Source: Pseudoclavibacter sp. AY1H1 (lineage in GTDB: Bacteria; Actinomycetota; Actinomycetes; Actinomycetales; Microbacteriaceae). From it: 64,000 nt of DNA. Every line of letters starts with the position of its first letter. Positions within the stretch are counted from its first letter, which is position 1. The notes beneath the pieces were generated by a model. It saw nothing but the letters and a program-made list of their open reading frames with translations, ran no database searches and had not been told where the DNA came from. Location of the stretch: contig NZ_PSXX01000006.1 in the NCBI RefSeq assembly GCF_002931055.1, positions 62,001 to 126,000 of the forward strand, in the 5' to 3' direction. This document shows positions 8,244 to 40,783 of this stretch, piece by piece. A program made the translations under genes and the position numbers.

Positions 8244-9710
8244 TCAGGAGCGGCCGTTGCCGTTCTGGCGGATGCGCGCGGTGAGCTCGGTGACCTGGTT
8301 GTAGACGTCTCGCCGCTCGGTCATGAGCTTCGTGATCTTGCGGTGGGCGTACATGACCGTGGTGTGGTCCCGTCCGCCGAACAGCTGCCCGATCTTCGGG
8401 AGCGAGAGGTTCGTCATCTCCCTGCAGATGTACATGGCGATCTGCCTGCTCGTTGCGATCGCCTGAGAGCGGGACGAGCCGTAGAGGTCATCGACGGTCA
8501 GCTGGAAGTACGCGGCAGTGCGGTTGATGATGTCGACCGGAGACACGATGCCCGTGTCCTGGTCGGAGACCAGATCCTTCAGGACGGTCGAGACGAGCGC
8601 AAGATCGACCTTCTCACCGTTGAGGTTCGCATACGCGGTGACTCTGATGAGCGTGCCCTCGAGCTCACGGATGCTGGAGGACACCCGTGCAGCGATGAAC
8701 TCGAGCGCATCGTCGGGAATCAGGAGGTTGTCGACCTGCGACTTCTTCCTCAGGATGGCGATTCGCGTCTCGAGGTCAGGCGACTGCACGTCGGTGATGA
8801 GGCCCCACTCGAAGCGCGACCGCATCCGGTCCTCGAAGCCCGTCAGCTGCTTCGGTGGTAGGTCACTCGTGATCACGACCTGCTTGTTGTGCTCGTGCAG
8901 GGTGTTGAACGTGTGGAAGAAGGCCTCCTGCGTCGAGTCCTTGCCCTGGAGGAACTGGATGTCGTCGATGAGGAGGATGTCGTTGTCGCGGTAGCGCGCC
9001 TGGAACGACTGCGTCCTGTTGTTGGCGATCGAGTTGATGAAGTCGTTCGTGAACTCTTCGCTCGAGACGTACCTGACCTGGATGCCCGGATATATCGACT
9101 CGGCGTAGTTGCCGATGGCGTGGAGCATGTGGGTCTTGCCCAGCCCGGAGCCGCCGTAGACGAAGAGGGGGTTGTACGAGCGAGCCGGTGCTTCCGCTAC
9201 TGCGACCGCGGCAGCATGCGCGAATCGGTTCGACCCTCCGATGATGTAGTTGTCGAAGGTGTAGCGAGGGTTGAGGCGCGACTCCGGGTCTGGCTGTGTG
9301 CGCGCTCCCTGATCCGACGAGGAATGGAGGCCGACCGCCTCCGACTCGACCACGGTGACGGAGCTCGTCGGCGCGGGAGCGGAGCGTGGTGGTGCCACCT
9401 CGATGTAGTCGTGCGAGTCCAGGGGCTCGCTCGCCGATGCTCGAGGCGCAGCATCCGGGTTGACGAGCACCGCGAAGGTCTTGATCTCGGACTCGTCGAG
9501 CTCAGCGATCGCGGCGAGCATCGGCACCCGCGCGCGCGTCTCGATCATCGTGCGAGTCATGTCGTTCGGGACTTCGAGGAGCAGGGCGCCGCTCATGACG
9601 CCCTTCGCCTCGACGAGGCCGAGGAACCCCAGAAGGGAAGCGGGGACGCGGTCGTCTTCACGCAGTGTGGAGAGCAGCGTCTGCCACGTCTCCGAAACGG
9701 GGTCGGTCAC
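8244..9710 (-). CDS. dnaA: Chromosomal replication initiator protein DnaA
   Basis: The AAA+ initiator that binds DnaA boxes and melts oriC; 488 residues. The start is GTG at 9710 (VTDPVSETWQTLLSTL), supported by GGGGGGAG upstream; an earlier in-frame ATG would add 14 unlikely residues. Domain I covers residues 1-90, followed by a variable acidic and proline-rich domain II to about 145. The AAA+ core has Walker A GGSGLGKTH (186-194) and Walker B LLIDDIQF (246-253). The C-terminal DNA-binding domain carries the signature GGRDHTTVMYAHRKI. DnaA boxes lie on both sides of the gene, in oriC and in the upstream region, which suggests autoregulation. Confidence 0.98.
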   Translation of the reverse strand: MTDPVSETWQTLLSTLREDDRVPASLLGFLGLVEAKGVMSGALLLEVPNDMTRTMIETRARVPMLAAIAELDESEIKTFAVLVNPDAAPRASASEPLDSHDYIEVAPPRSAPAPTSSVTVVESEAVGLHSSSDQGARTQPDPESRLNPRYTFDNYIIGGSNRFAHAAAVAVAEAPARSYNPLFVYGGSGLGKTHMLHAIGNYAESIYPGIQVRYVSSEEFTNDFINSIANNRTQSFQARYRDNDILLIDDIQFLQGKDSTQEAFFHTFNTLHEHNKQVVITSDLPPKQLTGFEDRMRSRFEWGLITDVQSPDLETRIAILRKKSQVDNLLIPDDALEFIAARVSSSIRELEGTLIRVTAYANLNGEKVDLALVSTVLKDLVSDQDTGIVSPVDIINRTAAYFQLTVDDLYGSSRSQAIATSRQIAMYICREMTNLSLPKIGQLFGGRDHTTVMYAHRKITKLMTERRDVYNQVTELTARIRQNGNGRS

Positions 9711-10132
9711 CGAAGCACTCCCCCCGTCCCTCTGTACTTCCCAGCTCCGCATCTCTGTGGGCCGGCGTTTCTTCTTGGCTGCGCACTCGCAGCATGGTCA
9801 ACGCACCGGCCGTGTGGCACTGGTGCGCAAGTCATTGTGATCTACCCGGTGAGATATCCACAACTTCTGTGGACAAACGGGCGTCTGCCTGTGCATAACT
9901 CGCAGAGGTAGGGGTCCAGCCTACGCCGGATCAGGGCGTGCGCCAATCGCTTTCGCTGGATCCGGCATGTCGCCGCTCCTCGGCACGAGCTCGTGAGCAT
10001 AATGCGGGGCTTCTGGCGGCAGTTGACTGCCAGGCGCAGGTCACGTAGGTTAAGGCAGTTGTGCCCTTCGGTAGGGCACTTGTGAAAATCCGTACGGCGT
10101 CCGCCGATCGGGTCGTATCTTCCGGAGTTCTC
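9711..10132. promoter_or_regulatory. Divergent dnaA / rpmH control region with DnaA boxes
   Basis: This 422-bp gene-free region drives dnaA leftwards and rpmH rightwards. It holds DnaA-box-like 9-mers ATATCCACA (9854-9862) and TGTGGACAA (9868-9876, the reverse of TTGTCCACA), about 145-165 bp upstream of the dnaA start. This suggests autorepression by DnaA. No convincing dnaA promoter hexamers were found. Confidence 0.6.
10023..10051 (+). promoter_or_regulatory. rpmH promoter (TTGACT-N17-TAGGTT)
   Basis: A good housekeeping-type promoter: TTGACT at 10023-10028, a 17-nt spacer and TAGGTT at 10046-10051. Transcription should start near 10058. The RNA would then begin with a perfect 7-bp hairpin, GTGCCCT/AGGGCAC (10061-10079), ahead of rpmH. 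The promoter call is by motif only. Confidence 0.55.
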
Positions 10133-12557: not shown

Positions 12558-12837
12558 TCTAGGACTTATCCACAGGAGTTTCCACAGGCGAGAGTACGCT
12601 CCTCGGCGAGTTCTGCACCTTCCCTCGTTAAAAGCCTGGTCAGGGGCTTATTCCAGGCGATTTGACTCTTGACCCGCCTCGATCCCGCGTTCTCCACAAA
12701 GTTATCCACAGCTTTGTTGTCCGTGGACGACTGTCAGGCGGGTGCGGTCGCCGCCGCACGTGTCAGACTGGTTCGAGCTGATTGCGGGAGGCACTGCAGT
12801 CTGGCGTCAACATTCACGTTCGAGAGGGATCTCCCGT
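12558..12837. promoter_or_regulatory. DnaA-box cluster upstream of rsmG
   Basis: A 280-bp gap with two perfect TTATCCACA boxes (12566-12574 and 12702-12710) and one-mismatch copies GTTTCCACA (12578-12586) and TTCTCCACA (12690-12698), all in the same orientation. Between them is AAAAGCCTGGTCA (12630-12642), which recurs upstream of dnaB. This probably places rsmG expression, or a secondary DnaA-binding locus, under DnaA control; the role is inference. Confidence 0.6.
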
Positions 12838-13476
12838 ATGACTGAGCAGCCGACCGAGGTCGAGGTCGAGCCGGCGATCGCCGCCGAGCTCTTCGCTGAC
12901 CGTATCGACCTTGCGCGGGCGTTCACGTCCGACCTCGCCCAGTACGGGGAGCAGCTCGGTCTGGTTGGACCCCTCGAGTACCCGCGGTTGTGGACGCGCC
13001 ATATCGTGAACTCGGTGCTCATGGCGCCGCTGCTCCGTCCGGGCCTCGTTGGAGACATCGGCTCTGGTGCTGGCTTGCCGGGTATCGTGCTCGCTATCGC
13101 ACGCCCTGATGTCAACTTCGTGCTGATCGAGCCGATGGAGCGTCGTACCGACTGGCTGCAGCGTGAGGTGGATGCGCTTGCCCTCGAGAACGTGCAGGTG
13201 CGTCGTGCTCGTGCCGAAGAGGTCCACGATGAGTTCACGTTCGACCAGCTGACAGCCCGAGCAGTTTCAGCTCTGAGCAAGCTGATCCCGATCACGGTTC
13301 CGCTCGTCCGCTCAGGCGGCGAATTGGTCTTCCTCAAGGGACGCTCCGCAGAAGCGGAGATCGAGAAGGCCAGCAAGGTGATTCGCAAGTTCGGACTCAT
13401 CGATGTTCGCGTCGAAGAACTCGGGGAAGAGCTGGACACCGAGACGACGCGAGTTATTCGCGCGACGGTCGACTGA
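12838..13476 (+). CDS. rsmG: 16S rRNA (guanine-N7)-methyltransferase RsmG
   Basis: The SAM-dependent enzyme that methylates the N7 of G527 (E. coli numbering) in 16S rRNA; it is also called GidB. It has 212 residues from ATG 12838 (MTEQPTEVEV), which is preceded by GAGAGGGA. The SAM-binding motif GDIGSGAGLPG is near residues 72-82, and an acidic ribose-binding residue follows in LIEPMERR. The RNA-binding half contains TARAVSALSKLIPI. In M. tuberculosis the same gene lies between jag and parA, but here about 7 kb of non-coding DNA separates it from parA. Confidence 0.95.
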   Translation: MTEQPTEVEVEPAIAAELFADRIDLARAFTSDLAQYGEQLGLVGPLEYPRLWTRHIVNSVLMAPLLRPGLVGDIGSGAGLPGIVLAIARPDVNFVLIEPMERRTDWLQREVDALALENVQVRRARAEEVHDEFTFDQLTARAVSALSKLIPITVPLVRSGGELVFLKGRSAEAEIEKASKVIRKFGLIDVRVEELGEELDTETTRVIRATVD

Positions 13477-13888
13477 CTGCTCTCGTTCGGTCGTCCTCAG
13501 AGTCACAGTTAAACGCTGACTCTTTGTATCGGTGGAGTTCGATGCAGCTTGGTTTTCTTCGTGAACAACACGGGCGCGGTATTTATCTCACGTGAATCTG
13601 CCGGTCATTGTCGATCAGGTGTCCCGAAGTCGGATTCTTGGTCTGTCGGTGTTGAATCCGCACGGAACAGCGTGCCGTAGCTCTGGAATCGGAGTCAGTC
13701 GGTCAGACGCGAACCGTTCTCGCTCATAGATGGCCCAGGCGCCGTCCCCACGTCACCTGACGCCAACCCCTCGATCAGTTGCGAGAGCCTGTCGCGCACA
13801 GGCAGTCGAATTCGGGCCGTCGTTCCTTTCCTACTCCTGAACTGTGTGCTCCCGACCCATTCGTATGAAGCTCTTCGTCAACGGCGGC

Positions 13889-13904
13889 TGTTTCACGTGA
13901 AACG
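13889..13904. other. parS site 1
   Basis: TGTTTCACGTGAAACG contains the perfect 14-bp palindrome of the ParB site. It is 413 bp after the rsmG stop and is the site nearest oriC. Confidence 0.9.
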
Positions 13905-14658
13905 GTGGATTTTCGTGGCGCGTTGTTATCCAGAAGGCCTATGCGCCGCGAAACTGTCGCTCGCTGCGCATCCATGAGTCGTGCCTGACCACCCTCTGAC
14001 CGACGTGGCTCATGGCGGCGGCCACGGGGGTGTGGGGGGTTCAGATGCCTTGGAAGCGTGCCCCGGACATTGGCGGACTCGGAGAGCTGACCGGTGGCAG
14101 TGCCGATCGTGGTGTGGTGGTGGGCGGCAAGTCCTTTTTGCCTGTCGCCCTGAGCCCTGTCGCTCTCTGCTACCGCTCTCCGCCCGTTGCTCTTTGGGGA
14201 GGTGTGGAAGGGCACATGAAGGCTCGAGCCTTCATGGCGCACGCCGAGACAGTCCCGAGCCAGCGCAGGAAGTCTGAGGCCACTGTGACCGCCCCGAGCC
14301 GCCCCCAACCGCCCCGACGCGGTTCACTGATATCTGAAGTCTCGCGTGCCGTCGCCGTGCTGGTGCGAGGAAGGCTACGTGACGAGCTTGCGGCCGGCTA
14401 CTGGCGACTGGGTAGTCACGGCGGGCTGCGGGCTGCGGGCGACAGACGAATGGCGGTGGGGGTGCGGTTCCGGTTCAGTTGGGGCGATACAGGTATGGGC
14501 ACGGGGTAGGGGCAGAGGAAGGAGGAGAGCGTCCGAGTCGGTAGCGTCTGCAAATCGAGGCGCGGCGCGTGAAAGCCGGCACTGTCACTGTCCGTCCACA
14601 AGCTTGTCGGAGCGCGCGTTGGGCGCTGGAAGCTGGTCTGGTGTGGAGATAGCTTCAC

Positions 14659-14712
14659 TGTGACTGTGACTGTGACTGTGACTGTGACTGTGACTGTGAC
14701 CGTGACCGTGAC
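14659..14712 (+). repeat. Hexamer tandem repeat (TGTGAC)n
   Basis: Seven exact TGTGAC units followed by two CGTGAC variants, 54 bp in all. It is a simple-sequence repeat, rare in bacterial chromosomes, and lies between parS sites 1 and 2. Confidence 0.9.
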
Positions 14713-14984
14713 CCTGCCGCTCTCGTTGCCCCTGTCCGTGCGCGGATCGGCGTTGGCTGTCTCGTGGGGTGCGGTGCTGCTCCCAATCGTCTGGTTACCC
14801 GTGTGGGGGCACAGACCTGGCTGTGGGACCGCACCCGCTCGGGACTACCAAGTGCGATTGCGTCGATGATGAGCTCACGTGAGCCGCTCGATGTTCGGTC
14901 CCGTCGCGGGCAGTGCCTGCACATGACTATGTTCACGTGATCGAACTCGTGACTTCAACCAGTTTCGATGTCTTGTCTTCAAAT

Positions 14985-15000
14985 CGTTCCACGTGAAACA
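14985..15000 (+). other. parS site 2
   Basis: CGTTCCACGTGAAACA is the asymmetric variant with C in the left arm (GTTCC), in forward orientation. Confidence 0.88.
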
Positions 15001-15152
15001 TCGTGCAATTCAGGATCCAAGATCGAGGATTCCGCGGTGGCCGCCAGTTGAGCTCCTCGCACAGTTTCAGAACTTCCTTGATCAAGACGGGCCGGTCGTC
15101 CGGTCGTCCCGTTGTCGATCCACCACTATTCATCCCAAGACCGACTTGGGCT

Positions 15153-15168
15153 TGTTTCACGTGAAACG
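15153..15168. other. parS site 3
   Basis: TGTTTCACGTGAAACG has a perfect palindromic core. It is only 168 bp from site 2. Confidence 0.9.
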
Positions 15169-15562
15169 ACGGCGGTCGCACCGTCACAGCGCAGGCCAAG
15201 GCTTGCAGTCCGTGGTCACCCTGTTGGGACATAGAGCTCGTGTACTCGCGTTCCTGCGTGCTCGCGCGTTGAAGCGAGGAAGAAGTACGAGGGAAATTGG
15301 GTGCCTGCGCTGCCTAGTACTCAGCCTGTTGCAATGACCATTGGGCTGAGCAAGCGCGTGCACCCATGGATCTCCCAAGGCACTGCCGATCGGATTCCCT
15401 CTGCCCCCAGTGGCCCCGCAGTCCTGGGGACCACTCTCACCATGGGTTGGGAGAGGGAATGGGATGAGATTGAGCGGGCCAGCCGAAGCATATCGACCGT
15501 GTGAGTTTGCGGTCTGGAGTCCGAATCAAGTGCAGCGACAGCACTAGGGGTGCCAAGCTGAA

Positions 15563-15610
15563 CTGCGTCTCTGCGTCTCTGCGTCTCTGCGTCTCTGCGT
15601 CTCTGCGTCT
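15563..15610 (+). repeat. Octamer tandem repeat (CTGCGTCT)6
   Basis: Six exact copies of the 8-bp unit CTGCGTCT, 48 bp, ending in CTGCGG. The 8-bp period does not fit a coding repeat. Confidence 0.92.
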
Positions 15611-16022
15611 CTGCGGCGGCCTAGCTGCCTAGTGATGCAGTGATTCACTGACTCAGCTGCGTGAAGTTCCGAGCGTTGACGTTCGATGTGTCCGATCTCA
15701 ATCGCACGCCGGAACCCAGTCGCGGCAAATTGGATCCAAGCTCGCGGCCGCTGGGGCCGGCTAACGGTTGGTGGAGCGCGAGAGTAGTACTGCTTTCCTT
15801 TGGGCCGTAGGCCCGGGCGTTCGGAGTCGCTGCACTTCGCCTCGTTCGGAAGGATACGGATCGTGTGACTGAGAGGGTTCGCGAGAATGCGTTTGTCATC
15901 GAATCAGGCGCGGCAGCAGAGTCCCAGACAGGTGCAACGACTGAACTGTGGATCGTAACCGCGGCGCGAAGTGGGTAGCGGTCCTGCTCCGGCTGTAGGT
16001 AGTGAGAGTCTCTAGGGCGGTG

Positions 16023-16038
16023 TGTTCCACGTGAAACG
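16023..16038 (+). other. parS site 4
   Basis: TGTTCCACGTGAAACG is the asymmetric variant in forward orientation. Confidence 0.88.
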
Positions 16039-16493
16039 GATGATTGTTGGCGCTTGAAGCTAGAGCAACATGACTCGAACACCATGAGGAGCCGGTGTCG
16101 CCTCGTTGTCGACTAGCGGGCTCCAGCAGCCGGCCGTCGCCGAATACTGGATGTTCAGCGGCGGCATCTGGTCCTCTCTGTGGGGCGGAGCGGAGTGTTC
16201 CACGGGGCTCAAGGAGTTCAGCTCGTCGAACGCGCCGGCTGGGCTCACCGGCCTTGGGCAAGGGCGCAGAGCTCGGAACAGTGCCACCTTGTCAATCTGA
16301 GACTCTTGTCTGTCGACGAGTTGAGAGTGCTCTCTACGCCGTGGCCGGACTCGATTCAGCTCCAAGTAGGTTAATAGGAAAAGAGAACCTCAGGTCAGCC
16401 ACCCACCATGTGGGAGATCTATCGGGACGCGTCTTCGGGCAGCGGGCCGAAGGAACGGTGTCATCCCAGCCGCGAATCCTGAGATGAGGGCTG

Positions 16494-16509
16494 TGTTCCA
16501 CGTGAAACA
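16494..16509 (+). other. parS site 5
   Basis: TGTTCCACGTGAAACA is the asymmetric variant in forward orientation. Confidence 0.88.
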
Positions 16510-16914
16510 GAACGTGACGGCTGACGACCGACAGCTGACAGGTCGAGTCACGTCTCAGGCGATGATGATCGTGCGCAGAGGCCCTTCGCATAAAGCTAAT
16601 GCAACGGAGTGGGCCGCCCTGCCAGACCGCATTTGTGTAAGCGTCGGTCCATCTCTCAACAGTGATCTGCTCCGCGATCGATACCTACGGGAGTTCTCGA
16701 TCGATATCGGCATGAGTCGCCGTGGACTGTCCGTCTCCAGGTGCTCAAGCAGTGAGGTCAGGGTAGTTCCGGTACCCGTGGCTGCCAGAGGTTCTGATCC
16801 GTGAGAGAGAGGGCGGCAGTCACGGATTGCGACTCGTGCGAATGAACGCTTCGGGCCAACTGCAACACAGTCCTACGCGTCAATTGGGCCCGCCCGAGTT
16901 TTGGGAGTGAATTG

Positions 16915-16930
16915 CGTTCCACGTGAAACG
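16915..16930 (+). other. parS site 6
   Basis: CGTTCCACGTGAAACG is the asymmetric variant in forward orientation. It abuts a second, degenerate copy GTCACGTGAAC, making a tandem pair. Confidence 0.88.
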
Positions 16931-17086
16931 TCACGTGAACGCTCAGGAAGGCACCGTCCAGTGGAGAAGGAACGACAGCTTGGTGAGATGCGCCCAGAGT
17001 CATGCTGGCTGGCCTCGTCAACGGTTCGCCGTTAGCGGCTGCTGCACTGGGGCTCGACCACCGTATTGAGCGCTAGGAATGCGCCC

Positions 17087-17102
17087 CGTTTCACGTGAAA
17101 CG
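17087..17102. other. parS site 7
   Basis: CGTTTCACGTGAAACG is a fully palindromic 16-mer, 172 bp after site 6. Confidence 0.9.
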
Positions 17103-17870
17103 TGGTCTGCTAGCTGGGTCACCTGAACTCTCAAACAGCCGCAAATGCCAAATGGCAACAAGTAACAGCACATCTGGATCATGGCACGTCTGTGCCGCGA
17201 GTGATCGGAGTGCGTTGAGAACAGGGGCTTGCTGGCGAGGTTAAAGGGTGGGTGTAGGGGGCTGAGAGGCTCCCGCAGTGCTGACAGTCGACTGGTGTGG
17301 TGGAGTCTGGGTCCCAGTACTGGACAGACATGGAACAAATGGAGTGGTCCGACGGGACTCGATTAGGTTCTCATATGAGTTGCGTGAGGTACTCATGTTC
17401 AACCGCTACCGACCCACGGGTACCCCGCGGTTGTGCTGCAACGTGGAATCGGCATGACACAACATAGGGAGTGAAGGCGTTGGCGAAAGCAGTCGGTAGC
17501 CTAAGTTGAATTAGGCCCGTGGTTCCAGTCGTGACCGTCGCCGTGAGGTGCAGCTGCGATCCACTGGTGTTCGGAGCTCATCATGGAGCCCTCATCACAT
17601 GACCGGCGCGCGCTCGGCTATCCCTTGAATCTCAGCGTCCGATGGTCTTGTTTCTGAGCGCCGGACCGGACTCTTCGGTTCGAACTTCGAGGTCTCGCAC
17701 TTGCGAGGTCCGGTGCTCATTCTGCGGCCCGCGCAACCCGCTGACGTGGATATTGGAGTCCTCACACTCTTGTCGTGTCTTCCAGGTCGAGCCGTGCGGC
17801 TTTGTAGCTGTCGGGAGCTTGAGACCCGACCTGGCTTGAGGCCCGAACCGAGCTGTCAGCCGTCGGGTTC

Positions 17871-17886
17871 TGTTCCACGTGAAACG
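17871..17886 (+). other. parS site 8
   Basis: TGTTCCACGTGAAACG is the asymmetric variant in forward orientation. Confidence 0.88.
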
Positions 17887-18123
17887 AAGCCAATACCTTC
17901 GTCTCGGGGTCTGTGGAAGGGGGGCGATCCATTAAGTCCCATCGTCACAAACAAGGCAGTCCCGTGGGACGTGTAAGTTGCGCGGTCGAATCTCGTCGAC
18001 CGTCGGTCCGTCCCATCAGGCCCTGTGAGCGGGCCCATACTGGGCCCCAGTAGGGCCGCCGCCTAGGGTCTGGGCGCAGGCTGATCGTGCAACGGACCAG
18101 AGCAGAACCAGCCTCTCTTCACG

Positions 18124-18139
18124 TGTTTCACGTGGAACG
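18124..18139 (-). other. parS site 9
   Basis: TGTTTCACGTGGAACG is the only asymmetric site in reverse orientation. It overlaps another CACGTG hexamer at 18120-18125. Confidence 0.88.
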
Positions 18140-18696
18140 AATCTTGAACGCCTAGCCCGCTGGGTGAGACCGAAGCCACGTGTGAAGTACTAGCCTCGGC
18201 TCGGCATTTCCAGCGAAGCAAAATACGCAGAGCAGGATGCACGTGAAAGCGTTTGCTGGGCGAGACACGGAGCCCATGCTGCGTCGCGGCGGGCATTAGA
18301 CGAAGAAGCGTGAATGCTCATGGGCTCGTAGGGGCCCCGTACCGCGGAGATCTCGTTCCACAGTCTCCTTACCCGCACTGCGTGTGCGCAGTTGTTTGAC
18401 TAATGATTGTCGCCGCATTTTGGGCCCGTAGTGGCGTTTGAGTGGTGGCGGGTGATTAGCCGAGGTGTCAACGAAGTGCCCGCGCCGGTGCATACAGGGG
18501 GTGGTACTTTCCCTTCGCCAGCTGCATCGCGATCCTGTTCGTCGACGTTGGGCGCCGTCGCCTGCTGAACATCAACGATTCGCTCCAGTGGTGAGGGTGG
18601 GTGCCTCGTAAGAGGGTCGCAAACCCCTTGCTAGTCTCTTGGCCCCCGCAGAGACGGTGGCGGGCGCCAAACAATGGTGGGCTCACGTCCTCCGTG

Positions 18697-18712
18697 TGTT
18701 CCACGTGAAACG
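18697..18712 (+). other. parS site 10
   Basis: TGTTCCACGTGAAACG is the asymmetric variant in forward orientation. Confidence 0.88.
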
Positions 18713-18844
18713 GACTGCAGTGATGACGCTGACTTCCTTCAGAGCGATTGAAGGAGGTCAGCGGGTCAAGGTCAAAGGTCAGTGAGAGCCGGCGATCAAT
18801 CAACACAGGGATCTCGCGCGCAGGCGGCGAATGAGATCGAGTAC

Positions 18845-18890
18845 TCTCCATCTCTCCGTTTCTCCATCTCTCCGTTTCTCCATCTCTCCT
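18845..18890 (+). repeat. 16-bp tandem repeat (TCTCCATCTCTCCGTT)
   Basis: Two exact 16-bp units and a third truncated one, 46 bp, forming a strongly pyrimidine-biased strand. Confidence 0.88.
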
Positions 18891-19423
18891 TCGCCTCGTC
18901 TCTTTGTGTTCCGCGTCCCCGTTGTGTGCTGTGGGGCTATGGGGCCCTGCGGTTTGGTCTGCTGGCCCCTCAGTGTCCTGTCGTGACTTGTGTCCGAAGT
19001 CCACGCTGATTCGCGTCTCTGACGGACTGGACTGGTGCCGAGGAAAAGGCAGACTAGGGCAGTCCTGTAGCGGCCGGAGCTCATTGGTTTCGTGGCCTGA
19101 GGAAGAGGTGAGTGTCCCGTCGGGCTTATTTCAGCAGCCTCTATCGGTCCTGTCCTCAGATCGTTGCTCCTCGCCGCTACTGCGGCAGCGACGATGACAA
19201 CCATTGGTCGGGCCCACTGGGACGAACTTGCGCGTCGCACACAGGGGGTGACATTGGGGCAACCTCGATTCAGGCCTGTCGAAAGCTCTGAGGTTCGGTC
19301 CGTCCTCAAGTTCTTCTTTCGCACCGATGATCATCGGGCTTTAGCCGACGGCCGTCTCTGTGGTCGATTGCAGGCTCGCTCTGGAACATTGGAGGACGCG
19401 GGCAGCTTGGGTGCAATTCCGGC

Positions 19424-19439
19424 CGTTCCACGTGAAACG
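19424..19439 (+). other. parS site 11
   Basis: CGTTCCACGTGAAACG is the asymmetric variant in forward orientation. Confidence 0.88.
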
Positions 19440-20091
19440 TAGTCGTCGAGGTGAATAGACGTCTGAATTTGAGAGGCGCGCCTCACCCTTCGCGCAGATT
19501 GCCCGCCACTGCAGTGGCCTGGGCGCGGTGCGAGTCCACTGAGGCGCACACAGCCGTGTGCCCGTTGGTGGAGCAGGTCGTGCTCCTGCTTCGGCCTCCG
19601 CTTCCGCGGCGCCGGTTGCATCTCTGAGCTGCGGAGGGGCAGGCCACGCCGTCGCTCACGACAACAACAAGGACGCCGGCCTCCTGACTGCCCCGTCGGT
19701 CGTGCTGGTCTCGCTGATCCCTCCCACTTCAAAGCCCGTAGGTCTGGTCAGCAGCAGGGTCCGCAGATCCGTTCGACAACGGGTCCCGACGGGCTGCAGA
19801 ATCCAGTTCCGCCCCGTGATGGCTCGCCGGGTCCTTGGCCCCTCGCCATCGGCTTCTCTTCTGAAGGTCCGGGTGCTGTTGGCGGTAGACGGTGCGGTCT
19901 ACGCGGGATGCGCCTACCGCGTTCGGATCGTGACTCAACGCAGGGTGGTGTTGCGCAGTCCAGCTACACGGTCCTGTGGTTTGCATCAATTCGTGTAGAA
20001 ATTCACGGCGGCGAGCTGTTCGTGCTCGCGGTGGAATGGGAGCGGGTGCCAGGCAGGCACCCGTGCTTTCGTGCAGCTACCCGATGACCAG

Positions 20092-20107
20092 CGTTTCACG
20101 TGAAACA
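20092..20107. other. parS site 12
   Basis: CGTTTCACGTGAAACA has a perfect palindromic core. Confidence 0.9.
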
Positions 20108-20182
20108 CAACCCGTCCGTGGGTCCCTGAGTCCGTGGATCCGCTCCGTGGGGCCGTGGGTCCGTAGGTCCGTGGGTCGGTGA

Positions 20183-20230
20183 GTCCATGTGTCCATGTGT
20201 CCATGTGTCCATGTGTCCGCGTGTCCATCA
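20183..20230 (+). repeat. Octamer tandem repeat (GTCCATGT)
   Basis: Four exact GTCCATGT units and two variants, 48 bp. They follow a looser array of GTCCGTGG-like units from about 20107. Confidence 0.88.
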
Positions 20231-20448
20231 TGCGTACGGCCGTGGGTGTGTACGCGCGTGCGTCACTTCCCCCCCTCACCTCACTCCTGAGGGCTCCCAG
20301 TCTGACGCTACGAGGAGGCAGGGCTTGGGTAAAAACGAGTTCGAGTGGACTGGTCGAGCCTTTTCAGATCCGGCTGGGACCAGCTCTTGGTGTCGGCTGT
20401 CTCCACGGCACCTCAACCCTCTAGCTGAAGTTGATGATGCCAGGCCTA

Positions 20449-20464
20449 TGTTCCACGTGAAACC
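20449..20464 (+). other. parS site 13
   Basis: TGTTCCACGTGAAACC lies 105 bp upstream of the parA start. It could let ParB influence parAB transcription. Confidence 0.88.
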
Positions 20465-20568
20465 AACTACCCCCACCGCGGTGCACTGATTCCACAAGCC
20501 TGAGCGTCACCGCGTTTCCGCGTGCGATCTGGGGCACAATTGAGACGTCTACTTGAGGGAGAGCATTC

Positions 20569-21492
20569 TTGAAAGCTTCATCTGCCGGCGATGCCGCTTC
20601 GCCACCAGCGTCGCAGCTCGACGATTCACCGCTCGCCACGGCTCTCTCTGAACTGAACCAGCGGAGAAAGAGCCTCGTCAAACGAGAGGTTCCCCTCCCC
20701 GATCACACGCGCATCTTCACGATCTCCAACCAGAAGGGTGGAGTCGGGAAGACAACAACCGCGGTCAACCTCGCGGCGGCCCTCGCGACGCTCGGCGCCC
20801 GCGTTCTGGTCATAGACCTGGACCCACAAGGCAATGCTTCTACTGCGCTCGGTATCGAACACCGTGGTGAGACCGCGGGAACCTACGAGGCTCTCCTCGA
20901 CGGAGAACCGCTCAGCGAGCTCATGCAGCAGTGCCCAGACATCGACACCCTCTGGTGCGTGCCGGCGACACTGGACCTGGCGGGCGCAGAAATCGAGCTC
21001 GTCAACCTCGACAAGCGCGACTACCGCCTGCGTCAGGCAATCGCTGGGCTCCTCGACGAGACCACAGGCACTGACCAGGAATTCCACTACGTCTTCATCG
21101 ACTGTCCTCCCTCGCTCGGCCTGTTGACGATCAACGCCTTCGTCGCTGCGCGAGAGGTACTCATCCCCATCCAGTGCGAGTATTACGCCCTTGAGGGACT
21201 CGGACAGCTGATCTCGAACCTCAATCTCCTGTCACAGGACCTCAACCCGCAGCTTCGACTCACGACGATCCTGCTGACGATGTACGACGGGCGCACCAAC
21301 CTGTCGCAGGAGGTCGCCGCCGACGTTCGAGAGCACTTCCCACAGGAGACGCTGAAGGTTGCGATTCCTCGCACCGTCCGTATCTCGGAAGCCCCGAGCT
21401 TCGGCAAGACCATCATTTCCCACGAACCAACCTCGACCGGCGCGATCGCGTATCTCGAAGCGGCCGTCGAAATCGCCCAGCGAGGAGCATAA
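20569..21492 (+). CDS. parA: Chromosome partitioning ATPase ParA
   Basis: A deviant Walker-type ATPase of 307 residues that moves ParB-bound origins to the cell poles or quarter positions. The start is TTG at 20569, supported by GAGGGAGAG directly upstream. About 45 variable residues precede the fold. The deviant Walker A KGGVGKTT is at 56-63 (signature Lys56 and catalytic Lys61), followed by the DLDPQGNAS loop and the FIDCPPSLG Walker B. It forms an operon with parB, which begins 5 nt after its stop. The nearest parS site lies 105 bp upstream. Confidence 0.97.
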   Translation: MKASSAGDAASPPASQLDDSPLATALSELNQRRKSLVKREVPLPDHTRIFTISNQKGGVGKTTTAVNLAAALATLGARVLVIDLDPQGNASTALGIEHRGETAGTYEALLDGEPLSELMQQCPDIDTLWCVPATLDLAGAEIELVNLDKRDYRLRQAIAGLLDETTGTDQEFHYVFIDCPPSLGLLTINAFVAAREVLIPIQCEYYALEGLGQLISNLNLLSQDLNPQLRLTTILLTMYDGRTNLSQEVAADVREHFPQETLKVAIPRTVRISEAPSFGKTIISHEPTSTGAIAYLEAAVEIAQRGA

Positions 21493-21497
21493 ACAAC

Positions 21498-22928
21498 ATG
21501 GCTACAAAAAAACGGACCGGACTCGGTCGGGGCATCGGGGCCCTCATCCCCACGTCAGACCGAGGTGCATCACGCCCCTCCGACGTCTTCTTCGACAGCG
21601 ACACACCTGCTTATCCCACGACTGCATCGACGCGTACCAATGCAGGAAAAGAGGCGACAACGGTCGCGTCTGATGCCGCCGCGGCCGAAGAGGCGGCATC
21701 ACTCGACGCGAAGACCGCAGAGACGGGTACGGAAACGAAGCCCCCCGCGACTCGGGCAAGTCGTGCGAGAGCATCAACGACCCAGGCCCCAACGGCCAAG
21801 GTGTCTGCTGCCAAGACCCCTGCTGCCAAGTCTTCTACTGCCAAGGCCCCTGCCGGAGCCAAGGCCCGCACCACGGCTGCGAAGGCAGCTTCAGGCGACC
21901 CCGCGACTCCGAAGAACGAGGCTGAATCGAAGAAGATCGATTCAACTAGTATGGTCGACGACACCCAGGAGCTCACGAGCACCAGCGCACCGGCGTCGGA
22001 GCGTTCGCCCGAAGCGCTCGATGCAACTGCTGCGCCGAGCAGTGCTGACAGCGACAACGGCGTCGTCGACGGAGACGGCCTCATCGAGATCCCTGGTGCG
22101 ACCCTGCGCGCCCTGGACCCGAGCCGGATCGTTCCGAACGCGCACCAGCCTCGAACCGAGTTCGACGAGGCCGCGCTGCAGGAGCTCATCATCTCCGTCC
22201 GTGAGTTCGGGGTTCTCCAGCCGATCGTCGTTCGCCCGATCCCGGCCGACCACCCGCTCCGCGACGAAGCCGACTTCGAGCTCATCATGGGTGAGCGTCG
22301 CCTGCGGGCGACGAAGGCAGCCGGTCTCTCGAGCATCCCAGCCGTCATCCGCAATACCGAAGACGACGTCATGCTGCGTGACGCGCTCCTCGAGAACCTG
22401 CACCGGAGTCAGCTCAACCCGCTTGAAGAGGCGTCCGCGTACCAGCAGCTCCTCAACGACTTCGGGATCACGCAGGAGGTGCTCGCGGAGCGAATCGGTC
22501 GTTCGCGCCCGCAGATCAGCAACACGCTGCGCCTCCTTCGGCTTCCGCTGGAAGTTCAGCGTCGCGTCGCAGCCGGTGTGCTCTCAGCAGGCCACGCCCG
22601 TGCGATCCTCAGCGCCGGCGAACCGGCAGCCATGCAACAGCTCGCCGACAAGATCGTCAACGAGGACCTGAGCGTTCGCTCGGCCGAAGCTGCCGCCGCC
22701 AAGTCGAGCAGCGCCAAGGCAGACACCCAGGCGCCCATCCACAAGGAGCCCCGCAGCGGCCTCACCGGGTACCTCGACGAGATCGGCGAGCAGCTCGGTG
22801 ACCGCCTCAACACTCGCGTCAAGGTCACCCTGCGGCGCACCAAGGGCCAGATCGTCGTCGACTTCGCCTCCATCGCGGACCTGAATCGGATCCTCGAGGA
22901 GCTCGGGGAGTCGGCACCCGGCAAGTAG
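21498..22928 (+). CDS. parB: Chromosome partitioning protein ParB with long Ala/Lys-rich linker
   Basis: The parS-binding CTPase clamp of 476 residues, against about 300-350 for most chromosomal ParB proteins. The N-terminal ParA-interaction peptide TKKRTGLGRGIGAL is intact. Residues about 20-195 are a low-complexity insert with a basic Ala/Lys/Thr/Pro segment (96-133, with repeats such as AKTPAAK and TAKAPAG), flanked by acidic parts. The CTP-binding motifs follow: NAHQPR (214-219), GERR (266-268 region) and ENLHRSQLNPLEEA (300-313). The helix-turn-helix reads EVLAERIGRSRPQISNTLRL. A second Ala/Lys patch (near 395-410) precedes the C-terminal dimerisation domain. Confidence 0.96.
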   Translation: MATKKRTGLGRGIGALIPTSDRGASRPSDVFFDSDTPAYPTTASTRTNAGKEATTVASDAAAAEEAASLDAKTAETGTETKPPATRASRARASTTQAPTAKVSAAKTPAAKSSTAKAPAGAKARTTAAKAASGDPATPKNEAESKKIDSTSMVDDTQELTSTSAPASERSPEALDATAAPSSADSDNGVVDGDGLIEIPGATLRALDPSRIVPNAHQPRTEFDEAALQELIISVREFGVLQPIVVRPIPADHPLRDEADFELIMGERRLRATKAAGLSSIPAVIRNTEDDVMLRDALLENLHRSQLNPLEEASAYQQLLNDFGITQEVLAERIGRSRPQISNTLRLLRLPLEVQRRVAAGVLSAGHARAILSAGEPAAMQQLADKIVNEDLSVRSAEAAAAKSSSAKADTQAPIHKEPRSGLTGYLDEIGEQLGDRLNTRVKVTLRRTKGQIVVDFASIADLNRILEELGESAPGK

Positions 22929-39044: not shown

Positions 39045-39397
39045 GCGCACGCTCGCGAGGTTGTGGAAAACGCCCGGATATCCCCGGTTTGCGTGGGGAA
39101 GCGGGCGGATGTTATGCACAGTCCCGCTTGCAGGTTTCAACCTTCAATGGATGCTTCACACCTGTTGTGCACACCAGATGTGCGCAATAAAAAGCCTGGT
39201 CAAGGCCGCTTTATCGCCTCATGCTCGGCAAGTATCCCCGATGTTATCCACAGAGTTTCCACACATCGTCCGGCGCGTCTCCACAGTTACCCACAGAGTT
39301 ATCCACAGGCACGCCGGTGATGGTTCGCCCGGCTGGGGAGCTGGGGACTACTGTGGTCAAATCTCTCACCGGCATTCGAGCGAAGTCAGGAGCATCC
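39045..39397. promoter_or_regulatory. DnaA-box cluster upstream of dnaB
   Basis: A 353-bp gene-free region. Between 39244 and 39307 it has five same-orientation DnaA-box-like 9-mers: TTATCCACA (39244-39252), GTTTCCACA (39255-39263), GTCTCCACA (39277-39285), TTACCCACA (39287-39295) and TTATCCACA (39299-39307). TGTGGAAAA (39062-39070) and TTATGCACA (39112-39120) lie further upstream. AAAAGCCTGGTCA at 39190-39202 repeats an element from the cluster upstream of rsmG. DnaA control of dnaB is the simplest reading. Confidence 0.65.
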
Positions 39398-40783
39398 GTG
39401 TCGATCGCGCATCTCGGTTCCTCATCTCAGGGTGAGCGGGAGACGCACGACGGGGTTCGCACGCCTCCCCACGACCTGCTCGCCGAGCAGTCCGCCATCG
39501 GCGGCATGCTCCTCTCGAAGGACGCGGTCGCCGACGTCGTCGAGGCCGTGCGCGGCATCGACTTCTACGTGCCGAAGCACGAGATCATCTTCGACTCCAT
39601 CCACGCGCTCTACGCCGCCGGTGAGCCCACGGATGTCATCACCGTCACCGACCACCTCACGAAGTCGGGTGAGCTCTCGCGCGCCGGCGGTGCCGAGTAC
39701 CTGCACACGCTGGCCGGCATCGTGCCGACAGCAGCGAACGCCGGCTACTACGCGGCGATCGTCTCGGAGCGCGCCGTCCTGCGGCGCCTGGTCGAGGCCG
39801 GCACCCGCATCGTGCAGATGGGCTACCTCGCGGAAGGTGAGGTCGTCGACCTCGTCAACCAGGCCCAGGCCGAGATCTACGGCGTCACCGGTGCTGTCGA
39901 GAAGGAGGACTACGTCGTCCTCGCCGAGGCCATCCTCGAGGCCCAGAACGACATCGACGCCGCGCAGAACAAATCCGGCGGCATGACCGGAGTGCCGACT
40001 GGGTTCAGCGACCTCGACCGCATCACGAACGGCTTCCACGGCGGCCAGCTCATCATCGTCGCCGCCCGCCCCGGTCTCGGAAAGTCGACGGTGGCGCTCG
40101 ACTTCGCACGGTCCGCGTCCATCACGCACGGCAAGGCCTCGATCTTCTTCAGCCTCGAGATGGGCAAGAGCGAGATCGCCATGCGCCTGATCTCGGCAGA
40201 GGCGAGCGTTCGGCTCCAGCACATGCGCGCCGGCGGCCTCACGCAGGAAGATCTCACGCAGATCGCCCGCACGCAGGGCGATATCTCCGACGCCCCGCTC
40301 TACATCGACGACAGCCCGAATATGACGCTCGTCGAGATCCGCGCGAAGTGCCGCAGGCTCAAGCAGAAGGTCGGGCTGTCGCTCGTCGTCATCGACTACC
40401 TGCAGCTCATGACAAGCGGCAAGCGCGTCGAGAGCCGCCAGCAGGAGGTGTCGGAGTTCTCGCGCGCGCTGAAGCTGCTCGCGAAGGAGCTCGACGTTCC
40501 CGTCATCGCGCTGTCACAGCTGAACCGTGGTCCCGAGCAGCGCGCCGACAAGCGCCCGGCGGCGAGCGACCTCCGCGAGTCCGGATCGCTCGAGCAGGAC
40601 GCCGACATGATCATCCTGCTCCACCGCGAAGGCGCGTACGACCGGGAGAGCCCGCGCGGCGGTGAAGCCGACTTCATCCTCGCCAAGCACCGCAACGGTC
40701 CGACCGACACGATCACCGTCACCTTCCAGGGGCACTTCTCTCGCTTCATGGACATGGCGCCCGGCTACGCGACGGGGCAGTAG
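39398..40783 (+). CDS. dnaB: Replicative DNA helicase DnaB
   Basis: A hexameric RecA-fold helicase of 461 residues that unwinds DNA at the fork. The start is GTG at 39398 (VSIAHLGSSSQGER), with AGGAG 5 nt upstream; earlier in-frame starts would run through the DnaA-box cluster and are rejected. The N-terminal DnaB domain begins PPHDLLAEQSAIGGMLLS. The Walker A is in AARPGLGKST, Walker B in SLVVIDYLQLM, and the arginine-finger region is at QLNRGPEQR. No intein interrupts the RecA domain. Its likely loader is the DciA-like protein encoded at 5 kb. Confidence 0.97.
   Translation: MSIAHLGSSSQGERETHDGVRTPPHDLLAEQSAIGGMLLSKDAVADVVEAVRGIDFYVPKHEIIFDSIHALYAAGEPTDVITVTDHLTKSGELSRAGGAEYLHTLAGIVPTAANAGYYAAIVSERAVLRRLVEAGTRIVQMGYLAEGEVVDLVNQAQAEIYGVTGAVEKEDYVVLAEAILEAQNDIDAAQNKSGGMTGVPTGFSDLDRITNGFHGGQLIIVAARPGLGKSTVALDFARSASITHGKASIFFSLEMGKSEIAMRLISAEASVRLQHMRAGGLTQEDLTQIARTQGDISDAPLYIDDSPNMTLVEIRAKCRRLKQKVGLSLVVIDYLQLMTSGKRVESRQQEVSEFSRALKLLAKELDVPVIALSQLNRGPEQRADKRPAASDLRESGSLEQDADMIILLHREGAYDRESPRGGEADFILAKHRNGPTDTITVTFQGHFSRFMDMAPGYATGQ

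What the first reader, a model, noticed from the sequence alone, without database searches (positions are those of the whole stretch)
13477..20568. A 7.1-kb gene-free field with 13 parS sites between rsmG and parA
Thirteen sites matching GTTTCACGTGAAAC or GTTCCACGTGAAAC occur between 13889 and 20464, spaced 168 to 1096 bp apart (mean about 550 bp); none was found elsewhere in the window. The DNA between them has no credible gene and lower G+C than its neighbours. In studied bacteria parS sites are usually fewer or lie scattered among genes around the origin; here the array and spacer DNA seem to form a dedicated centromere. Whether relatives share this is not known to me.
Basis: partly seen in the sequence, partly recalled or inferred. 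Interest (0 to 1): 0.85.

Follow-up and report, generated by a model that had tools for sequence, protein, structure and literature searches.

The report
Gene-free bacterial centromere with 13 sites
Near its replication origin this bacterium keeps about 7,000 letters of DNA without recognisable genes that hold 13 docking sites for the chromosome-segregation protein ParB; relatives have such fields too, but in other gaps and with largely different filler DNA, somewhat as the centromere DNA of animals and plants changes quickly while its job stays the same.

Summary
Confirmed: 13 exact parS sites (13,890-20,463) lie in 7,092 bp without detectable genes between rsmG and parA of a Pseudoclavibacter chromosome; the 4.2-Mb assembly has no other exact site. 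The rsmG-parA gap has a median of 146 bp in 135 sampled family genomes; this one (7,096 bp) is the largest. Relatives show a type: in a fixed gene order jag-rsmG-parA-parB-ddl, one gap may be swollen and carry the sites: rsmG|parA here, jag|rsmG in other Pseudoclavibacter and Gulosibacter, parB|ddl in Actinomyces; at least 10 changes of place on a quick tree. Sites are more evenly spaced than chance in 9 of 16 fields, this one included. Filler diverges fast: 60% identity (shuffled 55%) between two species whose 15 other compared gaps are 79-99.6% identical; in a closer Actinomyces pair 13 of 13 sites are unchanged while filler is 78% identical. Best reading: a dedicated multi-site ParABS centromere, selected for site number and spread rather than filler. 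ParB binding and lack of transcription are inferred. New variant of a known kind; nearest known is the Myxococcus xanthus parS cluster.

The parts
13477..20568 (.). gene-free parS field between rsmG and parA
   Evidence: no ORF with coding signal, no family hits among the 10 ORFs tried, 13 exact parS
13890..13903 (+). parS 1 GTTTCACGTGAAAC
14986..14999 (+). parS 2 GTTCCACGTGAAAC
15154..15167 (+). parS 3 GTTTCACGTGAAAC
16024..16037 (+). parS 4 GTTCCACGTGAAAC
16495..16508 (+). parS 5 GTTCCACGTGAAAC
16916..16929 (+). parS 6 GTTCCACGTGAAAC
17088..17101 (+). parS 7 GTTTCACGTGAAAC
17872..17885 (+). parS 8 GTTCCACGTGAAAC
18125..18138 (+). parS 9 GTTTCACGTGGAAC (the only asymmetric site in the opposite orientation)
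18698..18711 (+). parS 10 GTTCCACGTGAAAC
19425..19438 (+). parS 11 GTTCCACGTGAAAC
20093..20106 (+). parS 12 GTTTCACGTGAAAC
20450..20463 (+). parS 13 GTTCCACGTGAAAC, 119 bp before parA; a site lies 115-119 bp before parA in L005, L006 and L007 too
   Evidence: it lies in the one part of the field that aligns readily among the four species
20415..20568 (+). presumed parA promoter / leader, 77.5-78.7% identical to L005-L007
13588..13595 (.). TCACGTGA, possible decayed or nascent parS
   Evidence: place; 4 such 8-mers outside full sites, 0.14 expected, 0 of 200 shuffles reach it
14875..14882 (.). TCACGTGA, possible decayed or nascent parS
14933..14940 (.). TCACGTGA, possible decayed or nascent parS
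16931..16938 (.). TCACGTGA beside parS 6, possible decayed or nascent parS
14657..14712 (.). 6-bp microsatellite, 9.3 copies
15563..15615 (.). 8-bp microsatellite, 6.6 copies
18844..18889 (.). 8/16-bp microsatellite
20114..20228 (.). 8-bp microsatellite-like tract
12838..13476 (+). rsmG (16S rRNA G527 methyltransferase; start chosen by me), upstream border
   Evidence: TIGR00138 127.5 bits, cutoff 99.5
20569..21492 (+). parA (partition ATPase), downstream border
   Evidence: PF13614 6.8e-53
21498..22928 (+). parB: ParB_N, HTH_ParB and ParB_C domains behind a 195-aa N-terminal region
   Evidence: PF02195, PF17762, PF23552; length of the N-terminal region
8244..9752 (-). dnaA
   Evidence: PF00308, PF08299

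Best explanation
The field is the chromosomal centromere of a ParABS system: ParB (gene at 21498) loads at the 13 parS sites, spreads along the spacer DNA as CTP-dependent clamps, and the ParB-DNA body is moved by ParA and probably loads SMC. What is special is the lay-out. All exact loading sites of the genome are collected in one stretch of about 7 kb without genes beside parAB, and selection appears to act on the number of sites, their spread and the absence of genes, not on spacer sequence. The likely gain is a run of DNA without RNA polymerase in which clamps from neighbouring sites can slide and meet, giving a dense and stable partition body. Shown: the sites, lack of coding signal, even spacing, fast loss of spacer similarity, the same type in relatives, full site retention in one close pair of another genus. 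Inferred from known ParB biology: binding, spreading, ParA and SMC action. Conjecture: that freedom from transcription is the reason for the field.
For: 13 exact sites in 7.1 kb and none elsewhere in the assembly. ParA and ParB with their domains beside it. Same type in L005, L006, L007: gaps 6.8, 6.3, 6.3 kb with 13, 18, 12 sites, G+C 0.60-0.62. Own gap the largest of 135 family genomes, median 146 bp. Of 230 gaps measured in 82 loci, 45 of 47 gaps of 1 kb or more hold at least 2 parS, against 21 of 183 shorter gaps (18 of the loci were chosen by me). Spacing more even than uniform random: p 0.0135 for the window; p < 0.05 in 9 of 16 fields; Fisher p 7.5e-11, fields not fully independent. Actinomyces pair L057/L058: 13 of 13 sites identical, spacer 78%. 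L006/L007: field 60% identical against 79-99.6% for 15 other gaps.
Against: No ParB ChIP or RNA data. In the window's own group single sites are not well kept: only the site nearest parA is plainly orthologous in all four species; aligned sharing is 5 sites for L006/L007 (random mean 2.4, maximum 4 in 25 trials) but 1 for window/L005 (random mean 2.1). Seven of 16 fields (L005, L006, L063, L072, L077, L080, L082) show no significant evenness, and 3 of the 19 fields given had fewer than 5 sites and were not tested. One parS suffices for near-normal growth in C. glutamicum, and ParB from one site spreads over some 32 kb of its genes (PMC7083940 passages), so neither 13 sites nor a gene-free run is a general need. 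29 of 66 loci with all three gaps measured have no swollen gap at all.
Confidence: 0.77

Rival explanations
1. Tolerated filler: a region that ParB and SMC keep silent accumulates non-coding DNA and spare parS copies by slippage and duplication; the extra sites and the length do little.
For: Spacer is hardly conserved; microsatellites of period up to 20 cover 3.8% of the field against 0.39% of the rest of the window, though 5 of the 12 fields scanned have none; tandem parS copies of 130 bp in L014; one parS suffices in C. glutamicum; 7 of 16 fields are not evenly spaced.
Against: Even spacing in 9 of 16 fields, retention of 13 of 13 sites in L057/L058, similar length and site number in four species although the spacer has changed, and the tie between swollen gaps and parS point to maintenance.
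Confidence: 0.3
2. Remains of an integrated plasmid, phage or other mobile element that brought its own parS array.
For: The field sits in different gaps in relatives, as an insert might.
Against: 13477-20400 has no phage match and only matches inside its microsatellite in two plasmid records; no PHROG or Pfam hits in the 10 ORFs tried; in the loci seen, the field lies within two genes of parA.
Confidence: 0.05
3. The field carries unrecognised small genes or regulatory RNAs and the parS sites are secondary.
For: 7 kb is long, and short ORFs and RNAs can escape detection.
Against: No coding signal, no Rfam match, and blastn among the four species finds only the parA leader and a few short pieces.
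Confidence: 0.07
4. The array serves mainly to titrate ParB, or to control replication start through ParA and DnaA, rather than to build a partition body.
For: It lies 3.7 kb from dnaA, with DnaA-box words in the jag-rsmG gap at 12566 and 12702.
Against: No exact DnaA-box word inside the field (one with one mismatch at 13926); titration would not need even spacing.
Confidence: 0.1

Closest known systems
Myxococcus xanthus parS cluster (PMC3899335, passages seen)
   Same: 22 parS in one cluster close to parA and oriC; the cluster DNA is bound by ParB in vitro
   Different: about 3 kb, so about 145 bp between sites (my arithmetic), 4 kb upstream of parA; the passages seen do not say whether it is gene-free and report no comparison of spacer or place among relatives
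Corynebacterium glutamicum parS region (PMC7083940, passages seen)
   Same: actinobacterium, 10 parS near oriC, 9 of them intergenic, ParB binding shown by ChIP-seq
   Different: spread over 35 kb, 73 kb from oriC
Streptomyces parS set (PMC7333895, passages seen: up to 20-23 sites near the origin; counts of 8-35 in genomes coded f20 g107, which I take to be Streptomyces from recall)
   Same: many origin-proximal sites
   Different: recalled, not tested here: spread over a far longer region among genes
Fast-evolving regional centromeres of eukaryotes (recalled)
   Same: function kept while sequence and repeats turn over; place can shift
   Different: here a sequence-specific site is kept and the proteins are unrelated

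Membership tests
Chromosomal ParABS centromere | consensus parS sites near oriC | tested here: met
   13 sites; dnaA at 8244-9752; the place of oriC is inferred from dnaA
Chromosomal ParABS centromere | adjacent parA and parB with their domains | tested here: met
Chromosomal ParABS centromere | sites kept by selection | tested here: inconclusive
   met in L057/L058 (13 of 13); in the window's own group single sites turn over while number and spread persist
Chromosomal ParABS centromere | ParB binds the sites and spreads in vivo | not testable with these tools
   needs ChIP-seq
Myxococcus-type dense parS cluster | more than ten sites within a few kb near parAB | tested here: met
   13 in 6.6 kb; M. 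xanthus figures
Myxococcus-type dense parS cluster | common descent with the M. xanthus cluster | not tested
   M. xanthus DNA was not fetched
Plasmid or phage partition array | similarity to plasmid or phage DNA | tested here: not met

The most novel reading that the evidence does not exclude
Some Micrococcales and Actinomycetaceae build a regional centromere: a gene-free parS field that shifts among the gaps of a fixed gene block (jag|rsmG, rsmG|parA, parB|ddl), whose spacer diverges faster than every other gap compared in three species pairs, and whose function is kept by site number and spread. It would be a bacterial parallel of the eukaryotic centromere paradox, and free of transcription by design.
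Probability: 0.43. Interest if true: 0.85.

Novelty: new variant of a known kind. Interest (0 to 1): 0.65.

Why it matters
[quoted passage not shown] Here loci with the same gene order carry 2 to 19 sites, with field place, length and spacing varying naturally, so these questions can be put to direct comparison and experiment. It may also be a rare long stretch of bacterial DNA without coding constraint next to an important function.

Tried and rejected
Protein-coding content: codon-use scoring, Pfam, PHROGs and Rfam, all empty. The first scoring took its background from the field itself, which pushes field ORFs below zero, and some of its 34 training ORFs may be false; the second mends both and agrees. 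With the first scoring genes do show up elsewhere: 4 of 24 fields examined have an ORF above 12 (L036, L077, L079, L039).

Mobile-element origin: see rivals. Transcription signals: 1 promoter-like and 7 terminator-like places in 13300-20800, no more than shuffles give (1.0 and 5.1), so uninformative. Half-parS words (2 against 1.71 expected) and CACGTG (6 against 3.14) outside full sites are not enriched; TCACGTGA was one of four patterns tried.

A long ParB N-terminal region (195 aa here, 42-60 aa in most of the other Microbacteriaceae loci) goes with many parS over 79 loci (Spearman 0.52; linker of 100 aa or more and 9 or more sites: 14 both, 9 linker only, 4 sites only, 52 neither), but the tree holds only 3 independent pairs, too few to test, so I do not claim it.

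Blastn with ordinary scores suggested that L006 and L007 fields share little but the parA leader; with gentler scores they are collinear at 56-63% in pieces, with 0 hits in 20 shuffles, so I speak of very fast divergence, not of replacement.

G004 and G007 of the genus gave no rsmG, parA, parB or parS match; their assemblies may lack the region, so they count neither way. Of the 82 loci left, the 18 were chosen by me, four as genus members and the rest for many sites or a wide gap, so 47 of 230 is no natural frequency; the 135 genomes are the even sample. Gaps run between ends of protein matches, so some are tens of bp too long.
Full report
The observation. The window comes from a genome whose nearest named relatives are Pseudoclavibacter sp. 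AY1F1, RFBB5 and P. terrae (92-93% RsmG identity). The pattern GTTYCACGTGRAAC has 13 exact matches, all between 13890 and 20463, and the whole 4.2-Mb assembly of 25 contigs has these 13 and no more. Between the stop of rsmG (13476) and the start of parA (20569) lie 7,092 bp. None of 41 ORFs of 60 aa or more has a positive codon-use score under either of two scorings; the 10 ORFs I chose have no Pfam hit at E 0.1 and no PHROG hit at 0.01; Rfam gives nothing in the window. ParA and ParB have their usual domains.

How unusual the gap is. In a sample of 140 genomes drawn evenly from the family, rsmG and parA were found on one contig in 135: median gap 146 bp, 27 gaps above 1 kb, 13 above 2 kb, 2 above 5 kb, both of this genus. 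The site count as such is not a record: in 158 genomes of the class it runs from 0 to 35, the highest counts in one genus.

The same thing in relatives, in other places. In L005, L006 and L007 the field has the same place, 6.8, 6.3 and 6.3 kb, 13, 18 and 12 sites. Two further genus members, L072 and L075, have 2.5 and 1.8 kb with 7 and 4 sites in rsmG|parA; two more, L073 and L074, have 8.4 and 4.7 kb with 11 and 8 sites one gap earlier, jag|rsmG. In the branch of Gulosibacter (L010 is G. sediminis, L036 is Gulosibacter sp. 10; L076 and L077 are unnamed and placed there by the tree) L010, L076 and L077 have 3.5, 4.8 and 3.8 kb with 13, 16 and 7 sites in jag|rsmG, and L036 has 7.0 kb with 14 sites in rsmG|parA. 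L057, L058 and L063 (Actinomyces) have 4.6, 4.7 and 3.8 kb with 13, 15 and 11 sites in parB|ddl. Not all fields are wholly free of coding signal: L077 holds a 413-aa ORF and L036 a 123-aa ORF near rsmG; the other ten of the Pseudoclavibacter-Gulosibacter group have no ORF above +4; of 24 fields examined in all, four have an ORF above 12.

Over 82 loci and 230 gaps measured, 45 of the 47 gaps of 1 kb or more hold at least two sites, and 21 of 183 shorter gaps do. Of 66 loci with all three gaps measured 29 have no swollen gap, 35 one and 2 two, and in those two the second gap holds no parS. In the same loci dnaA|rpmH (78 measured, up to 1,235 bp), rpmH|yidC (79) and yidC|jag (82) hold no site; parA|parB (81) holds 5 in all. 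On a quick tree of DnaA, YidC, RsmG and ParA the place changes at least 10 times among the 45 field-bearing loci and at least 3 times among the 12 of the Pseudoclavibacter-Gulosibacter clade. The tree is a short search without mixture model and warns of long branches, so the larger number is rough.

The filler changes fast. L006 and L007 are 92.6% identical in six genes and 77.7% at four-fold sites (81.2% over the ten genes matched). Fifteen other gaps in three 20-kb stretches are 79-99.6% identical where aligned (coverage 0.55-1.00); the field is 60.2% identical (coverage 0.94), shuffled DNA giving 55.3%. These control gaps lie between ORFs of my own simple gene finder, and at least one (dnaA to yidC) contains small genes, which makes it look more conserved. 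With gentler scoring the two fields are collinear in pieces at 56-63%. In two more pairs the field is again the most diverged gap: L010/L076 0.708 against 0.938 and 0.883; L057/L058 0.778 against 0.910, 0.929 and 0.814. Four-fold sites and ordinary gaps are under some selection, so part of the contrast may be that this is a stretch with almost none.

The sites persist, in two ways. In L057/L058 all 13 sites of one are present and identical in the other (which has 15), where spacer is 78.0% identical; the aligned stretch includes the end of parB and some 570 bp of ddl. In the window's group number and density persist while single sites do not do so clearly: aligned sharing beats random placing for L006/L007 (5; random maximum 4), window/L007 (6; maximum 5) and barely for L005/L006 (6; reached in 4% of trials), but not for window/L005 (1; mean 2.1), 25 trials each. 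The site nearest parA is 115-119 bp before it in all four. Signs of turnover in the window: four TCACGTGA cores outside full sites where 0.14 are expected (0 of 200 shuffles; places), and microsatellites at 3.8% against 0.39% in the rest of the window; of 12 fields scanned 7 have such repeats and 5 have none.

Spacing. The 13 sites are more evenly spread than uniform random places (p 0.0135). Of 19 fields given, 3 had fewer than five sites and were passed over; of the 16 tested 9 give p below 0.05 and 7 do not; Fisher's combined p is 7.5e-11, with the limit that some fields are related.

Mechanism. Known ParB biology (recalled, and in abstracts listed) gives loading at parS, CTP-dependent clamp sliding, ParA-driven movement and SMC loading. 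On that basis the field is the loading and sliding ground of the partition body. Site number, spread, length and lack of genes are what lineages keep while sequence is rewritten; that is what one would expect if clamps from many loading points must fill a run of DNA not swept by RNA polymerase. The last step is conjecture: no expression data were available, and promoter and terminator scans were uninformative.

What is known. M. xanthus has 22 sites in 3 kb about 4 kb upstream of parA (passages, PMC3899335). C. glutamicum has ten over 35 kb, nine intergenic, and one is enough for wild-type-like growth (passages, PMC7083940). A review asks why numbers vary and what drives clustering (passages, PMC7333895). 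The listings of my full-text searches for parS with Microbacteriaceae, with Gulosibacter, Pseudoclavibacter, Agromyces or Actinomyces oris, and with gene-free, array, noncoding or rapidly evolving show no description of such a field (of the Gulosibacter paper PMC9477822 I saw passages). The library is open-access only, and the basic survey of parS in bacteria (Livny 2007) is not held and may list some of these counts. I therefore call it a new variant of a known kind.

Noticed in passing
window 39062-39360; L090 8347-8592: Seven DnaA-box-like words (TTRTCCACA, up to one mismatch) in about 300 bp just before dnaB (ORF 39221-40783, TIGR00665; the true start is probably near 39400); six rows (five places) in L090, in a stretch I take to be the matching one. 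Denser than the dnaA-dnaN gap of this window, which has three.
   Followed up: partly
window 12566-12710: Two exact DnaA-box words and one with a mismatch in the jag-rsmG gap, about 1.2 kb before the first parS.
   Followed up: no
window 21498-22928: ParB has a 195-aa N-terminal region before the CTPase domain; 118-259 aa in the 12 Pseudoclavibacter-Gulosibacter loci and 140-254 aa in the 8 Actinomyces loci that could be measured, 42-60 aa in most of the other Microbacteriaceae loci.
   Followed up: partly
L014 13026-13962: Cryobacterium sp. Y11: a parS-bearing 130-bp unit in 7.2 tandem copies, 94% matches, downstream of parB; a satellite-like parS array.
   Followed up: partly
window parS 13890-20463: Of the nine asymmetric sites eight point the same way and one the other way; not so in L005 (4 and 6).
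   Followed up: no
L057 11182, 11967, 12225: Actinomyces oris has parS sites inside the parA and parB coding regions; L058 has sites at like places.
   Followed up: no
G004, G007: Two genomes placed in the same genus give no rsmG, parA, parB or parS match; one is rated 97% complete.
   Followed up: partly
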